Below the pieces are notes generated by a model. It searched no databases. It was not told the origin of the DNA and was given only the letters and a program-made list of their open reading frames with translations. A stretch of 49,205 nt of DNA from positions 98,730 through 147,934 of the forward strand of contig JANWZD010000008.1 in the NCBI GenBank assembly GCA_025054935.1, given 5' to 3'. The translations under genes were made by a program, and so were the position numbers. The stretch comes from Dehalococcoidia bacterium. Its GTDB lineage: Bacteria; Chloroflexota; Dehalococcoidia; SpSt-223. Of this stretch, positions 1 through 5,645 are shown piece by piece (the first letter of the stretch is position 1; each line of letters opens with the position of its first letter).

Positions 1-321
1 TGGTGACCACGACATCGCCTGCTTGGGGAGCAACCTCGTCGTGAAAGGCTGCGCCCCGACCCCCCGCGATCAAGGCGTTGCGAGCGGCAATGGCGGCGAA
101 GAGCGGCGCGCGATGGTGCAAGTCCGGATAGCTAGGCCGGTAGGCGACCGCGACGTGGATGACAAGCAGTTCGCGCCGGCGAGCGCCCGAGCAGCAGCGT
201 CGAGCAGCGCTTCGACCGCCGGCCGCATGGCGATGCGGTCGGGGCCGAACGTTCCGGCTGGGTGGACGAGGTCGTCCTGCAGATGCATCGCGAGCAGCGC
301 AAGCGAGGAAGAGCGGGTCAT
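1..321 (-). pseudogene. Isochorismatase-family cysteine hydrolase, frameshifted and cut by window edge
   Basis: The minus strand from the ATG at 321 reads an isochorismatase-like N-terminus (about residues 8-20: LALLAMHLQDDLVHP). It loses homology after LLDAAAR, near 185-205. Shifting frame recovers the rest of the domain, ELLVIHVAVAYRPSYPDLHH followed by RAPLFAAIAARNALIAGGRG, running off the left edge. Family members use a DxQ motif carrying the catalytic Asp; here that position reads His (MHLQ), a one-base change. The gene is divergent from the hydrolase at 360, with 38 bp between starts. The frameshift plus the Asp-to-His change suggest decay, but an assembly indel cannot be excluded. The family assignment rests on motif recognition; the C-terminal half with the catalytic Cys lies outside the window. 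Confidence 0.6.
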
Positions 322-359
322 GGGGCTATACTCCGCGCCAGAGGAAAGTGGAGAAAAGC

Positions 360-2063
360 ATGACGATCGAGCGCCACTATCTCTCTGTCGGCGAGCGCCG
401 TGTCCACTACCGCCGCGCCGGCAGCGGGCCGCCGCTCGTCATGCTCCATGCCGCGCCGAACAGTTCGCTCGTCCTCGAGCCGCTGATCACCGCGCTCGCC
501 GCGGCGCGGACGGTGATCGCGCCCGATGCTCCGGGCTACGGCGAAAGCGCGCCGCTCGCGGTGCGCCGGCCGACGATCCACGACTACGCCGTCGCTCTTG
601 GGGAAACGCTGGACGCGCTCGGCCTCGATCGTGTCGATCTCTACGGCTCGCACACCGGCGCGAAGACGGCGGTCGCGCTCGCCCTGCTGCGGCCCGACCG
701 TGTCCGCAAGCTCGTGCTCGACGGCTACGGCCTGTACACCCCTGAGGAGCGCGATGACCTGATCGCTCACTTCTGTCCGCCGATCGAGCCCGACTGGGCC
801 GGCAGCCATCTCGTCCGCGTCTGGGCGCTGCGGCGCGACATGTTCATCTTCTGGCCCTGGTATCGCCGCATCCCCGAGGCGCGGCTGCCGCTCGACCTGC
901 CGACACCGGAACGGCTGCACGAGCTGGTCGTCGATTTCCTGCGCGGCGGGACCTTCCCCTGGCTCGGCCACCTCGCCGCATTCCGCTACGACGGGCTCGC
1001 CGCGATCCGGCAGGTAAGCGTGCCGACCCTCCTCTTCGCCGGCGAGGGCGACCCGCTTCGCCCACACCTCGAGCGGCTGACGGCAGGCGGAACGCTCCGC
1101 GTCGAGCCTGTGCCAGCGGGAATGCACGATGCCAGCGCGCTCGCCGAACGGACGCTGTCCTTCCTTGCCGGCGACGGTCTGCCGCCGGCCGCGCCGCCGC
1201 CTCCAGCGGTGGCAAGCCGCCCCGGCGTTATCCGCCGCCGCTACGTGCCGAGCCGGCTCGGGCCGATCCTGGCGCGGTTCAGCGGCGAGCTGGGCAGGAA
1301 GCGTCCGCTCGTTCTCTTCCAGAGTTCGCCTGGGTCAAGCGAGCCGCTCGAGCCGCTCCTCGCCGAGCTTGCGAGCGACCGCTTCGTCGTCGCCTTCGAC
1401 ACGCCCGGCAACGGCGACTCCGTTCCGTTCCCGGGTGAGCCGACCATCGACGACCTCGCCGCAGTCCTCGGCGACGCGATCGACGCGCTCGGCATCGACG
1501 ACTACGACGTCTACGGCTACCACACGGGCGCGCTGATCGGCGTGCAATCGGCGCTCGACCGGCCGACGCGCGTCCGCCACGTCATCGCGGACGGCATTCC
1601 GCTCTATCCGCCGGCGCTGGCCGCCGAACTGCTAGAGCGCTACGCGCCGCCAATGACGATCGACCCGCACGGGGGACATCTTGTCTGGGCGTGGAACTTC
1701 CGGCGCGATATGACGCTCTGGTCGCCGTGGTACCGCCGCCAGATGCGCTCGGCGCGCCGACGCGACCCCTACCCCGACCCTGAAGAGCTGCATTGGGCAA
1801 CGGTCGATTTTCTGAAGTCGGCGACGACCTATCACGTCAACTATTGGGCCGCGTTCCGCTATCCGACAGCGGAGCGGCTGACGCGCCTCAAGACACCGGC
1901 GCTGATGACGACGAAGCGGGGGGATTCGCTCGCTAGGGGCGTGCCGGAGGCGGCGCGGCTCGCGCCCGCGGCTGAGGCGCAGGACCACGCGGGGATCTCC
2001 TCTCCAGAAGCGCGCGCCCAAACTGCCGCACTCTTCCGCGCCTTTCTCGACCGGGAGCCGTAA
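360..2063 (+). CDS. Tandem (two-domain) alpha/beta-fold hydrolase-like protein
   Basis: A 567-aa protein made of two fused alpha/beta-hydrolase domains, about residues 1-270 and 285-567. Each has an HAAPNSS/QSSPGSS oxyanion-type region, a DxPGxGxS strand turn and a nucleophile elbow. The elbows read GSHTG (His98) and GYHTG (His388), so the residue that is normally Ser is His in both halves. The C-terminal His of the triad appears kept in each half (AGMHDAS, QDHAGIS). I chose the ATG at 360 because GAGGAAAG lies just upstream and homology starts immediately; longer in-frame extensions upstream overlap the divergent gene. The reaction is unknown. The fold is certain, and catalysis by a normal Ser triad looks unlikely. 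Confidence 0.85.
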   Translation: MTIERHYLSVGERRVHYRRAGSGPPLVMLHAAPNSSLVLEPLITALAAARTVIAPDAPGYGESAPLAVRRPTIHDYAVALGETLDALGLDRVDLYGSHTGAKTAVALALLRPDRVRKLVLDGYGLYTPEERDDLIAHFCPPIEPDWAGSHLVRVWALRRDMFIFWPWYRRIPEARLPLDLPTPERLHELVVDFLRGGTFPWLGHLAAFRYDGLAAIRQVSVPTLLFAGEGDPLRPHLERLTAGGTLRVEPVPAGMHDASALAERTLSFLAGDGLPPAAPPPPAVASRPGVIRRRYVPSRLGPILARFSGELGRKRPLVLFQSSPGSSEPLEPLLAELASDRFVVAFDTPGNGDSVPFPGEPTIDDLAAVLGDAIDALGIDDYDVYGYHTGALIGVQSALDRPTRVRHVIADGIPLYPPALAAELLERYAPPMTIDPHGGHLVWAWNFRRDMTLWSPWYRRQMRSARRRDPYPDPEELHWATVDFLKSATTYHVNYWAAFRYPTAERLTRLKTPALMTTKRGDSLARGVPEAARLAPAAEAQDHAGISSPEARAQTAALFRAFLDREP

Positions 2064-2121: not shown

Positions 2122-2180
2122 GAAGCCGGAAGATTGGCAGCGCGTCACCCGGAGGAGGGCCGGGGATGCAGGAGGAAGGG

Positions 2181-3746
2181 ATGAGGTCTGTCCTGACGAC
2201 CTTGCTCGTAGCAGCCATGCTCGGCGCCGCCTGCGCGCCAGCCGCGCCCACGCCGCAGCCCACGACCGGAGGAGCGCAAGTCCCTGCGCCGCAGCGGGCG
2301 GCGGAGCAGATCTTGCGCATCGGGTCGGCAGGGCTCACGACGCTCGGGCCTGAGTCGGTGCTGGTCAACTTCAACCATATCCAGTTCGACTCCCTGCTCA
2401 ACTTCGGTAAGGACTTTGTCATCCAGCCGGGCGTCGCCGAGAAGTGGGATCTTCAGCCGGATGGCACGACGTGGCGGTTCACGCTGCGCAAGGACATGAC
2501 CTTCGGCAACGGCGAGCGGCTGACCGCCGATGACGTCGTCTTCACCATCGAGATGCTGCTCCAGCCCTCACCGACGAACACCGTCGGGCGCCAGTTGCTC
2601 TTCACCACCGGCGCGCGGAAGGTCGATGACTACACCGTCGATATCTTGACCAAGCAGCGCGACTACTCGCTGCTCTATGTCGCGCCGAATGTCTTTATCG
2701 TCTCGAAGAAGGCCGTCGAAGCGGTGGGCGGCTACCGCGAGTTCGTCACTAATCCGAAAGGCGGCGGCTCCGGCCCGTTCGAGTACATCGAGGGCAGGAC
2801 GACCGACCAAGTGATCTACCGCTTGCGAAGCACGCCGCATCCCTACCGCAAGCCGAACGCGACCGAGATCCGCTGGCGCATCATCCCTGACCCAAGCCAG
2901 CGCATCAACGGCATCCGCGCGAATGAGCTTGACATCGTCCTCGGGGTCACCAACCCCGACCTCATCGACGCGGCGCGGCGCGAGGGGATGAACGTGCTCG
3001 CCGAGAGCGACAGCTATGTCAACATCCTGTTCAACAAGCGTGAGGCTGAGCAGACAGCGCTGCGCGATATCCGCGTCCGCCGCGCCCTCAACTACGCCGT
3101 CGACAAAGAAGCAATCGCGCGGACGATCTACCGCGGCTTCGGCACCCCGATCGGCCAGCTCGGCGCGCCGACCTCGCCGATGTACAACAAGAACATCCCG
3201 CCCTATCCGTATGACCCGAACCGGGCGAAGCAGCTCCTCGCCGAGGCTGGCTATCCGAACGGCATTACCCTGCAAGGGCTCCAGTTCTCGAACGCCGACC
3301 CCACGGGCGTCGCCCTCTTCCAAGCGGTCCATTCCGCGCACCGCGACGTCGGGATCAATTACCAACTGTTCCCGCTCGAGCAATCGCAGTACGTCCAAGT
3401 CGCGCTCGGCCAAGCGCCGCGCACGGAGCTGATCTCAGCCGGCGGCACCAACCCGAACGGCATCTTCTCCTTCAGCTGGCAGTTCCTGAAGTGCGACCAG
3501 CCGCCGCAGGTCGTCCTCTGGTGCGTCCCGGCGATGGACGAACTGCTGTCGCGCGCCTATGCCGAGCCAGACACCAACCGCCGCTGGACGATCCTGCAGG
3601 AAGCAATGAAAGCGTGGGCGGACGACGTGCCCATGGTCTTCCTCGTTGCCACCGCCACCTTCGTCATCACCTCGGCGAAGACGCAGGGTTTGGTGCGCAC
3701 CACGCCGTCGTATTGGAACTACGACCCGGCCTATAAGATCCAGTAA
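2181..3746 (+). CDS. ABC transporter substrate-binding lipoprotein, family 5 (oligopeptide/nickel type)
   Basis: A 521-aa periplasmic-binding-type protein. The N-terminus MRSVLTTLLVAAMLGAAC is a short signal with a Cys that is a likely lipidation site, though the lipobox has Gly at -3 and so is not perfect. A Thr/Pro-rich linker follows. The family-5 signature is clear: WRFTLRKDMTFGNGERLTADDVVF at about residues 95-118 (quoted in part: RKDMTFGNGERLTADDVV). Later segments (RRALNYAVDKEAIARTIY, YDPNRAKQLLAEAGYPNG) also match the family. I chose 2181 because AGGAGG is placed ideally and the signal peptide starts there; the in-frame ATG at 2166 is an alternative that adds five residues. No permease or ATPase gene adjoins it, so the partners must lie elsewhere. 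The substrate is unknown. Confidence 0.9.
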   Translation: MRSVLTTLLVAAMLGAACAPAAPTPQPTTGGAQVPAPQRAAEQILRIGSAGLTTLGPESVLVNFNHIQFDSLLNFGKDFVIQPGVAEKWDLQPDGTTWRFTLRKDMTFGNGERLTADDVVFTIEMLLQPSPTNTVGRQLLFTTGARKVDDYTVDILTKQRDYSLLYVAPNVFIVSKKAVEAVGGYREFVTNPKGGGSGPFEYIEGRTTDQVIYRLRSTPHPYRKPNATEIRWRIIPDPSQRINGIRANELDIVLGVTNPDLIDAARREGMNVLAESDSYVNILFNKREAEQTALRDIRVRRALNYAVDKEAIARTIYRGFGTPIGQLGAPTSPMYNKNIPPYPYDPNRAKQLLAEAGYPNGITLQGLQFSNADPTGVALFQAVHSAHRDVGINYQLFPLEQSQYVQVALGQAPRTELISAGGTNPNGIFSFSWQFLKCDQPPQVVLWCVPAMDELLSRAYAEPDTNRRWTILQEAMKAWADDVPMVFLVATATFVITSAKTQGLVRTTPSYWNYDPAYKIQ

Positions 3747-3774
3747 CTCGCGCCCCGGCGCGGCCCGTGCGATA

Positions 3775-3808
3775 CTCGGGACGGAGAGACGCGATGCTCC
3801 GTCCCGAG
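3775..3808 (+). promoter_or_regulatory. Perfect 12-bp inverted repeat enclosing the start codon of the MNT-HEPN gene
   Basis: CTCGGGACGGAG (3775-3786) pairs perfectly with CTCCGTCCCGAG (3797-3808) across a 10-nt loop. The loop ends in the ATG at 3794-3796, and the best Shine-Dalgarno match (GGAG) lies in the 5' arm. As RNA it could hide the ribosome site; as DNA it could be an operator for autorepression; it could also help end the upstream transcript, although no U-tract follows. The pairing is directly visible; the role is inferred. Confidence 0.7.
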
Positions 3809-4486
3809 CTTGCTGTTGCCCCTGACGCCATCGCTGCTGTCTGCCGCCGCTACGGCATCATGCGCCTCAGCCTCTTCGGCTCGGCGCTGCGTGAGGATTT
3901 CCGTCCGGAGAGCGACCTCGACCTGCTTGCCGACTTCGCCCCGGATGCCGGTCTTGCGCGCTTTGCGGCTGCCGAGGCGCTGAGTGCCCTGTTTGGCCGG
4001 CCGGTTGACCTCGTCGACCGGCAGGGGCTTGCGCCACGCCTGCGCGCCGGCATTCTTGCCAGTGAACGGCTACTCTATGAGCGCCATCCGGACGGGAGCG
4101 AGACGATGCTCCCAGTCGCCATTGAGGAGCTGGCACCGCCAATGGCCAAGGACGAGCGCGCTTACCTCGAAGACATGCTCGCCGCCGCCGAAGAGCTGCG
4201 CGCAATCGTGGCCGGGCTCGACCGAGCGGAGTTCTCCTCAAACCGGGTCGTTCAGCTTGCGGTGCTGCATCTCATCCAGACGATTGGCGAAGCAGCGAGC
4301 AAGGTGTCGCGCGAGACGCGTGAGGCGCATCCGGACATTCCGTGGGCGGCGATGATAGGGATGCGCAACCGCATCGTTCATGCCTACGACCGCCTTGACG
4401 ACGACCTGGTCTGGCAGGTCGCCCGCGAGCAGATGCCGCCTCTTATCGCCTCGCTGCGCCGCCTCGTAGCTAATACGGAAGCGTAA
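3794..4486 (+). CDS. Single-chain MntA-HepT-like protein (nucleotidyltransferase fused to HEPN domain)
   Basis: A 230-aa protein that joins the two halves of a MntA/HepT toxin-antitoxin pair. Residues 1-100 are an MNT-type minimal nucleotidyltransferase with the exact GSX10DXD motif (Gly29-Ser30, Asp41, Asp43) and a third acidic position, Asp72 (VDLV). Residues 118-225 are a HEPN/DUF86 domain with the RX4HXY motif at Arg191, His196, Tyr198. In the family, HepT is an RNase and MntA inactivates it by adding AMP to the motif Tyr; the pair is usually two adjacent genes with the toxin first or second. Here all key residues are present in one open frame. I chose the ATG at 3794 over the GTG at 3767 because GGAG lies 7-8 bases upstream. 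An internal ATG at 4106, after GGAGCGAG, could give HEPN alone. No separate partner gene adjoins it. Confidence 0.85.
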   Translation: MLRPELAVAPDAIAAVCRRYGIMRLSLFGSALREDFRPESDLDLLADFAPDAGLARFAAAEALSALFGRPVDLVDRQGLAPRLRAGILASERLLYERHPDGSETMLPVAIEELAPPMAKDERAYLEDMLAAAEELRAIVAGLDRAEFSSNRVVQLAVLHLIQTIGEAASKVSRETREAHPDIPWAAMIGMRNRIVHAYDRLDDDLVWQVAREQMPPLIASLRRLVANTEA

Positions 4487-4513
4487 CCGCGCTTCTTCGA
4501 GAATCCATGTCTC

Positions 4514-5501
4514 CTAGTGCGCAAGACGGAACCGCCGCACGAGCTGGCGCGTTGCCAGCGCCTCCGCCAACTCGTGGCGCACGACGCCCTCCCGCGCCAG
4601 AGCCCGTATCTCCGCTTCGTTTGCGGCGTGCTGCAGCGGCGAGGGGAATAGTCGGAGAAAACGGTCGCTAGCTGCTCAGCGGTGTGTGCCGGTCAGAGAA
4701 CCGCGCGATCCGGGGAGCCCTGGCTGATACTGCGTGAAGACGAGCTCCCCTTCCGAGAGGAAGATAGGTACCGACGTTAGCCAGTAATCGGTATAGCCAA
4801 CAGTTGCTTGTTCGGCAATCAAGGTGCGCTGAAGCTCGCGAAAGGCGGCTTCGTCGAGCCAGCCGACATCGCGCTGCAAATCGCTCCACATTGTGGCGAG
4901 GGTGCCAAGGCCGAGAAACCCGAGCCAGACAATACCACCAGCCAGCCCGAGTGGCCGCAGGTCGCGGAGCAAGCGGGCGAGAGTACTGCCGATGACCAGA
5001 GCCGCCGCACACCGAAGATAGTGCGTCGAGAAGAGGTCGGCGAGGTTCGCGGCGCCGACAAGCAGGCACCGAGATTGCCGATGAGAAGCCCTGCGACAGC
5101 AGCAATGGGCAGCTTCGAGAGCGGAAGGGGGTGAGGGTGAGAAGGGCGAGCAGCACTCCACGGTTCCACCACCCGAAGAGCCTGACCAGCCGAAAATCAC
5201 TCGCCTCGCAGACAGCCGTGACTGAAGAGCAGGAGTAAGCCGGCTCCCCGCTGAGCGACGCTGCTGCCCCAACCAGCCAAGAGAGGGGGATTTTGCGGCG
5301 ATGCTGCTGGCCCGGGTAATAGGGCGCGTAACGCCCCTTGCTGATTTCGCGGGCAAGCAGCGCGAAAAACGCCTCATCGGCGTCGAAGTTCGCCTGCCAG
5401 TGCCACGTGCTGAGCGCTGGCGGGACAAGCGCGAAGTCCACCATCAGTATCGCAACGAAGAGGACGGAAGCAGCGCGTCGCTGCGGCGCGCCCTCGGCCA
5501 T
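4514..5501 (-). pseudogene. ArnT/GT39-like membrane glycosyltransferase, broken by several frameshifts
   Basis: Reading the minus strand from the ATG at 5501, the first frame gives an N-terminal transmembrane segment, then the NFDADEAFFALLAREISKG region typical of GT39/GT83-like membrane transferases (acidic DxDE pair after TM1). Coding character then jumps to a second frame near 5130-5165 (LPIAAVAGLLIGNLGACL), to a third near 5070 (VGAANLADLFSTHYLRCAAA through TDYWLTSVPIFLSEGELVF), and again near 4690-4700 into a tail ending EALATRQLVRRFRLAH at the stop codon at 4514-4516. At least three shifts are needed, and the usual central transmembrane region is missing, so this looks like a true pseudogene. 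It relates in theme, not as an obvious copy, to the two large membrane proteins at 10.4-15.4 kb. Confidence 0.6.
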
Positions 5502-5645
5502 TGCCTAAGAGCATTCTCCAGCGGGGCGACTCGTTGCGGCTCTCCGCCGGCTGCTTGTATCCATCACGCTTGCGACCCGTTGGCTACTGCAGGGGGCGCC
5601 GCATTTCAGCCGCTGCCTCCTTGCCGCGCTCGCAGGTGAGCGCCG

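What the first reader, a model, noticed from the sequence alone, without database searches (positions are those of the whole stretch)
3767..4486. MntA and HepT joined in one polypeptide
Both halves of a polyAMPylating toxin-antitoxin pair sit in one 230-aa chain with all motif residues intact: GSX10DXD (Ser30, Asp41, Asp43) and RX4HXY (Arg191, His196, Tyr198). In the known systems two proteins meet and the MNT protein adds AMP to the HEPN Tyr. In a single chain the antidote cannot be lost by proteolysis or dilution, so it may be a self-silenced RNase that needs a trigger, or not a TA system at all. An internal ATG at 4106 after GGAGCGAG could release a HEPN-only product.
Basis: partly seen in the sequence, partly recalled or inferred. 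Interest (0 to 1): 0.8.

Follow-up and report, generated by a model that had tools for sequence, protein, structure and literature searches.

The report
Single-chain MntA–HepT toxin–antitoxin fusion
One gene joins an antidote enzyme and its RNA-cutting toxin in a single protein with both active sites intact; such fusions turn up repeatedly in this phylum, and most still carry an internal start signal that could make the toxin on its own.

Summary
ATG 3794–4486 encodes one 230-aa chain with an MntA-type nucleotidyltransferase (GSX10DXD) and a HepT-type HEPN RNase domain (RX4HXY). MNT–HEPN fusions are known but called occasional, and fused HEPNs were said typically to lack catalytic residues. 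Here at least nine fused chains in Chloroflexota all keep both motifs, lie in several separate places in a tree of two-gene pairs, and in two lineages are under purifying selection; so the proposed refutation (dead relatives) fails. Two-gene relatives overlap by about 8–14 nt in another frame; the window has 65 extra nt that bring the frames into register. The linker carries two in-frame ATGs with Shine–Dalgarno sites (4106 and 4142; 4142 matches the ancestral hepT start). Such signals at the HEPN border occur in 7 of 9 fused genes, against 8–10% of ordinary coding segments. Best model: a fused HepT/MntA system giving a self-neutralising chain and probably some free HEPN toxin. The gene lies on a ~1.9-kb segment absent from two same-genus genomes. 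A base error is not excluded: plasmid pUO1 shows that small indels can create such a frame. Toxicity, AMP transfer and expression are untested.

The parts
3830..4087 (+). MNT (MntA-type nucleotidyltransferase) domain, residues 13-98
   Evidence: PF18765/PF01909 above cut-off; 1wot and MntA 7bxo by fold
3878..3922 (+). GSX10DXD motif (G29, S30, D41, D43); third Asp D72 at 4007-4009
   Evidence: conserved in all fused chains
4076..4080 (+). vestige of the ancestral mntA/hepT overlap: TAT (Y95) with ATG 4077 and TGA 4078, both now out of frame with HEPN
   Evidence: sequence compared with two-gene junctions
4080..4141 (+). linker, net +65 nt relative to the two-gene arrangement; low-confidence region in the model
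4094..4108 (+). internal initiation signal 1: GGGAG (4094-4098) and ATG 4106 (M105), within a weak hairpin
4124..4144 (+). internal initiation signal 2: GAGGAG (4124-4129) and ATG 4142 (M117), at the position of the ancestral hepT start
4175..4462 (+). HEPN (HepT) domain, residues 128-223
   Evidence: PF01934 93.7 bits; 7ae8 HEPN toxin by fold
4364..4387 (+). RX4HXY motif: R191, H196 (RNase), Y198 (AMP acceptor in known systems)
   Evidence: PMC7641770
3775..3808 (+). hairpin after the upstream solute-binding-protein gene; holds the Shine-Dalgarno in its 5' arm and ATG 3794 in its loop; a similar hairpin follows the orthologous gene in G401, which lacks the fusion
3787..5644 (.). species-specific segment (fused gene plus decayed minus-strand gene) absent from the syntenic site in G401 and G400

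Best explanation
A type VII (HepT/MntA) toxin-antitoxin pair whose two genes became one reading frame. Shown: the fused frame, both intact catalytic motifs, independent recurrence of such fusions in Chloroflexota, purifying selection on two other fused lineages, and in-frame start plus Shine-Dalgarno signals at the HEPN border. Inferred: the full-length chain folds as tethered MNT and HEPN domains, the MNT half transfers AMP from ATP to Tyr198 of HEPN (within the chain or between chains of an oligomer), and so the HEPN RNase is kept off from the moment of synthesis. Also inferred: initiation at ATG 4142 and/or 4106 yields some free HEPN (114 or 126 aa), which the fusion silences in trans, so that the toxin-antitoxin logic survives with the fusion acting as the antitoxin.
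For: Domains and motifs. Nine fused chains, all with both motifs. Tree: fused rows in several places, at least three label changes forced by well-supported branches; all nearest kin of the window protein are two-gene pairs. dN/dS about 0.12 (MNT, G319/G570) and about 0.17 (whole chain, G568/G627). Internal start+SD in 7 of 9 fused genes (4 of 6 lineages) against 8-10% of 20-25-codon coding segments and 42% of true two-gene junctions. ATG 4142 aligns with the hepT start of the two-gene relatives. Model pLDDT 89.9; the halves match MntA 7bxo/1wot and HepT-type 7ae8. Chemistry from PMC7641770.
Against: No experiment and no expression data. Both halves score below NCBIfam's equivalog cut-offs for MntA and HepT (49.6 and 41.2 against 60). 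The internal start may be a relic, and G023 has none. ATG 3794 sits in a strong hairpin inherited from the upstream gene, and no sigma-70-like promoter was found, so expression is uncertain. The next gene is a decayed remnant. The window gene itself has no close fused orthologue, so selection on it could not be tested.
Confidence: 0.5

Rival explanations
1. A self-silenced RNase made only as the fused chain: the MNT domain keeps HEPN modified or masked in cis until a trigger (phage protein, protease, phosphodiesterase, ATP drop) releases it, like CapRel or EzeT.
For: Both motifs are intact; the fused chain of G023 has no in-frame ATG/GTG/TTG in its linker, so there the fusion must be the only product; precedents for fused toxin-antitoxin chains exist (PMC9712102, PMC4826407).
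Against: The window and most other fused genes keep strong internal start signals; no sensor domain or phage context is present, and the chain holds nothing beyond the two TA domains and a linker.
Confidence: 0.2
2. Not a fusion in the living cell: an assembly base error, or a decaying pair, hides two ordinary overlapping genes.
For: In the next frame a TGA at 4123-4125 would end MntA just before hepT ATG 4142, so one missing base in about 4080-4122 would restore two genes. Plasmid pUO1 (L037) shows how easily this arises: its fused frame (675 nt) differs by small indels from the two-gene version (677 nt, about 99% identical) that other plasmids carry. The neighbouring minus-strand gene is broken.
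Against: No long homopolymer in the linker; the neighbouring long genes (solute-binding protein, oxidase subunit I) are intact; the linker is 65 nt longer than a normal junction rather than one base off; other fusions are conserved between species; domain scores are as high as any in the set.
Confidence: 0.17
3. A domesticated nucleotidyltransferase: the MNT half modifies a small molecule or another protein and HEPN is only its substrate-binding domain, as in kanamycin nucleotidyltransferase, AadA or GlnE-type enzymes.
For: Same domain order; whole-chain Foldseek matches to AadA, AAD(9) and kanamycin nucleotidyltransferase; PMC3710099 describes this route for fused MNT-HEPN proteins.
Against: Those matches superpose badly (rmsd about 10-13 A, TM about 0.3), whereas each half fits MntA or HepT alone; the RNase residues and the AMP-acceptor Tyr are kept in all nine fused chains, unlike the domesticated enzymes.
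Confidence: 0.1

Closest known systems
HepT/MntA (HEPN/MNT) type VII toxin-antitoxin system, Shewanella oneidensis SO_3166/SO_3165
   Same: Same two domains in the same order, PF01934 and PF01909, GSX10DXD and RX4HXY motifs
   Different: Two genes and two proteins there; one chain with a ~20-aa linker here. AMP transfer shown there, not here.
MNT-HEPN fusions already noted in surveys (pAgK84, PMC2701414; 'HEPN-M occasionally fused to MNT', PMC3710099)
   Same: Same architecture class
   Different: Reported only in passing, without biochemistry; fused HEPNs were said typically to lack RNase residues, while these keep them. No internal start signal was described in the passages read.
CapRel and EzeT fused toxin-antitoxin proteins
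   Same: Toxin and antitoxin in one self-silenced chain
   Different: Unrelated domains and toxic activities (tRNA pyrophosphorylation, UDP-GlcNAc kinase); the antitoxin there is not an AMP-transferase.
Aminoglycoside nucleotidyltransferases (AadA, AAD(9), kanamycin nucleotidyltransferase)
   Same: Nucleotidyltransferase followed by a HEPN-like helical bundle in one chain
   Different: HEPN-like domain without RNase motif (PMC3710099); two-domain arrangement does not superpose.

Membership tests
HepT/MntA type VII toxin-antitoxin system | HEPN domain of PF01934 with RX4HXY | tested here: met
   93.7 bits against cut-off 23.5; R191, H196, Y198
HepT/MntA type VII toxin-antitoxin system | MNT domain of PF01909 with GSX10DXD | tested here: met
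   31.6 bits against cut-off 21; S30, D41, D43
HepT/MntA type VII toxin-antitoxin system | Two adjacent genes making two proteins, antitoxin first | tested here: not met
   One open frame; domain order is kept
HepT/MntA type VII toxin-antitoxin system | Scores above NCBIfam equivalog cut-offs NF047752 (MntA) and NF047751 (HepT) | tested here: not met
   49.6 and 41.2 bits, cut-off 60 each
HepT/MntA type VII toxin-antitoxin system | AMP transfer from MNT to the HEPN tyrosine silences the RNase | not testable with these tools
   Needs protein chemistry
Fused single-chain toxin-antitoxin (CapRel/EzeT-like in principle) | Toxin and antitoxin domains in one chain | tested here: met
   subject to the base-error caveat
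Fused single-chain toxin-antitoxin (CapRel/EzeT-like in principle) | Toxin part toxic alone and silenced in the whole chain | not testable with these tools
   Needs expression experiment
Aminoglycoside-type nucleotidyltransferase with HEPN substrate-binding domain | HEPN lacks RNase residues | tested here: not met
   Residues intact in nine of nine fused chains
Aminoglycoside-type nucleotidyltransferase with HEPN substrate-binding domain | Both domains superpose together on AadA/KNT | tested here: inconclusive
   TM about 0.3, rmsd about 10-13 A, but the model's domain orientation is uncertain (pTM 0.62)

The most novel reading that the evidence does not exclude
A nested-gene toxin-antitoxin system: one gene makes, from two in-frame starts, a full-length MNT-HEPN protein that acts as the AMPylating antitoxin and a shorter HEPN-only protein that is the toxin; the arrangement evolved several times from two-gene pairs.
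Probability: 0.33. Interest if true: 0.68.

Novelty: new variant of a known kind. Interest (0 to 1): 0.47.

Why it matters
[quoted passage not shown] In the crystal structure the nucleotide is not near the target tyrosine, so how AMP transfer happens is also open. Natural fusions fix the ratio and distance of the two partners, which makes modification within a chain against between chains testable. A nested HEPN-only start would be a simple way to keep a toxin-antitoxin logic in one gene. The set also corrects the impression that fused HEPN domains are dead.

Tried and rejected
Stop-codon loss as the origin of the fusion: rejected, because two-gene junctions are in a different phase (49 of 52 in phase 2) and the window linker is 65 nt longer. 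Delftia pUO1 as a further natural fusion: set aside, since it differs by small indels from the two-gene version in other plasmids. Linker as a genome-wide palindromic repeat: no second good copy in the genome. Phage or plasmid context: no viral contigs relative; few, weak phage hits; no plasmid record where one place covers 80% or more of the window protein. Close orthologue of the fusion: none. Start-region duplication as origin of the linker: 22 of 26 columns alike with the ATGs in register, about 0.3% of SD-bearing ATG pairs are as alike, but only about 4% by plain local alignment against random pieces; kept as a hint.

Full report
Observation. The frame is open from GTG 3767 to TAA 4486; the likely start is ATG 3794 with GGAG upstream, giving 230 aa. 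Pfam finds Polbeta/NTP_transf_2 in residues 13-98 and HepT-like in 128-223, all above cut-off. No other copy of either family was found in the genome.

Known background. HepT/MntA was shown to work by transfer of three AMPs to the Tyr of RX4HXY by the GSX10DXD enzyme, with two separate genes (PMC7641770). Fusions have been noted before: 'HEPN-M ... occasionally fused to MNT' and 'a HEPN-MNT fusion on ... pAgK84' (PMC3710099; PMC2701414). PMC3710099 adds that HEPN domains fused to MNT typically lack the RNase residues. So the architecture is not new; intact catalytic residues in the fused form are the point of interest.

How common, and alive or dead. Searches over up to 738 Chloroflexota genomes (the highest handle given is G737) gave nine fused chains without an internal stop: the window, two in G319, and one each in G570, G544, G568, G627, G023 and G189 (the G189 frame contains undetermined bases). 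All keep GSX10DXD or GSX11DXD and RX4HXY. The list is a minimum, because long outputs were cut. Related fused genes of two genera show purifying selection: dN/dS about 0.12 in the MNT half of G319/G570, where the HEPN half is too diverged for a reliable dS; about 0.17 over the whole chain of G568/G627. In a tree of joined MNT and HEPN domains the fused rows lie in several places, with at least three changes forced by well-supported branches; the window protein's nearest rows are all two-gene pairs. That tree was built before G570, G544, G568 and G627 were found, and it includes the pUO1 frame. Fusion has therefore happened more than once, and the window case looks separate.

How the frames were joined. 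In 49 of 52 two-gene junctions hepT lies in phase 2 relative to mntA, usually starting 8-14 nt before the end of mntA, at a 'TATG' inside its last codons. The window keeps a TATG at 4076 (Y95), but the HEPN-type N-terminus (MAKDERAYLEDML) starts 65 nt later at ATG 4142, in the mntA frame. The fusion thus needed a net insertion, not mere loss of a stop. Part of the linker (4090-4112) resembles the start region of the gene (3777-3800), with the two ATGs in register: 22 of 26 columns, as alike as about 0.3% of SD-bearing ATG pairs of the window; this is a post hoc hint.

Internal start. ATG 4106 has GGGAG and ATG 4142 has GAGGAG upstream. Across fused genes, an in-frame ATG or GTG with a predicted SD energy of -5.6 kcal/mol or better sits at the HEPN border in 7 of 9, or 4 of 6 lineages if related genes are counted once. 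The same test is passed by 8-10% of 20-25-codon segments in 17 ORFs taken as genes in the window and by 42% of true two-gene junctions. With a rate of 10%, four or more of six has a probability near 0.001 (my binomial). The G319, G570 and G544 linkers differ widely yet keep the ATG at the same place. G023 has no start codon there. The simplest reading is that many fused genes can still make HEPN alone; retention as a relic is possible.

Structure. AlphaFold2 with 28 rows gave pLDDT 89.9 but pTM 0.62, with the linker low: two good domains, uncertain relative placement. Foldseek finds MntA (1wot, 7bxo) with the first half and the HEPN toxin (7ae8, 7ae9) with the second; whole-chain matches to AadA-type enzymes superpose badly. 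NCBIfam's MntA and HepT models match below their equivalog cut-offs.

Locus. In G401, a same-genus genome without the fusion, the orthologues of the upstream solute-binding protein (88%) and the downstream oxidase subunit I gene (88%) are neighbours, 187 bp apart. DNA similarity ends at window 3786 and resumes at 5645. G400 shows the same neighbours with a decayed solute-binding-protein gene. The fusion and a broken minus-strand gene therefore lie on a species-specific segment, or one lost by the relatives. The 3775-3808 hairpin (-27 kcal/mol) holds the fusion's SD in its stem and ATG 3794 in its loop; a similar hairpin follows the solute-binding-protein gene in G401, so the start of the fused gene seems to be built on the older gene's 3' hairpin. 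No sigma-70-like promoter was seen. Expression is therefore an open question.

Caveat. Plasmid pUO1 (Delftia) has a fused frame of 675 nt, while about 99% identical plasmid copies have 677 nt and two overlapping genes. Such a frame can come from small indels, natural or erroneous. For the window this is not excluded, since a single added base in 4080-4122 would end mntA at TGA 4123-4125. Against it: no long homopolymer, intact long neighbouring genes, a linker much longer than a normal junction, and species-conserved fusions elsewhere.

Verdict. Observation confirmed; interpretation partly supported. A fused derivative of HepT/MntA, a new variant of a known kind. It is not filed as a canonical type VII member because the two-gene feature and the equivalog cut-offs were tested and not met; that it works like one is likely but unproven.

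Noticed in passing
window 4668-5501 (-): Broken membrane-protein gene: the N-terminal part reads in one frame, the C-terminal part in another, and an in-frame stop follows; no Pfam match. Looks like a pseudogene on the same species-specific segment.
   Followed up: partly
window 159-2063 (+): One 634-aa frame holds two alpha/beta hydrolase domains in tandem (two Abhydrolase_1 stretches).
   Followed up: no
G400 and G401: The solute-binding-protein family of window 2166-3746 gives 73 and 67 matches in the two same-genus genomes, an extreme expansion.
   Followed up: no
L073 (G319), L074 (G570), L075 (G544): Related fused genes share a well-conserved MNT half (92% and 72% aa identity to G319) but much more different HEPN halves (75% and 39%), as if the toxin half were exchanged or evolving fast.
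   Followed up: partly
L036, Rhodospirillum rubrum plasmid NC_007641, about 2773-3432: MNT and HEPN in the same frame separated by one TGA and no start codon before HEPN; a relative of the pUO1 frame.
   Followed up: partly
L037, Delftia plasmid pUO1, 1779-2453: The collection's gene table lists only a DUF86 gene that begins inside the fused frame, so such fusions may be under-reported in databases.
   Followed up: partly
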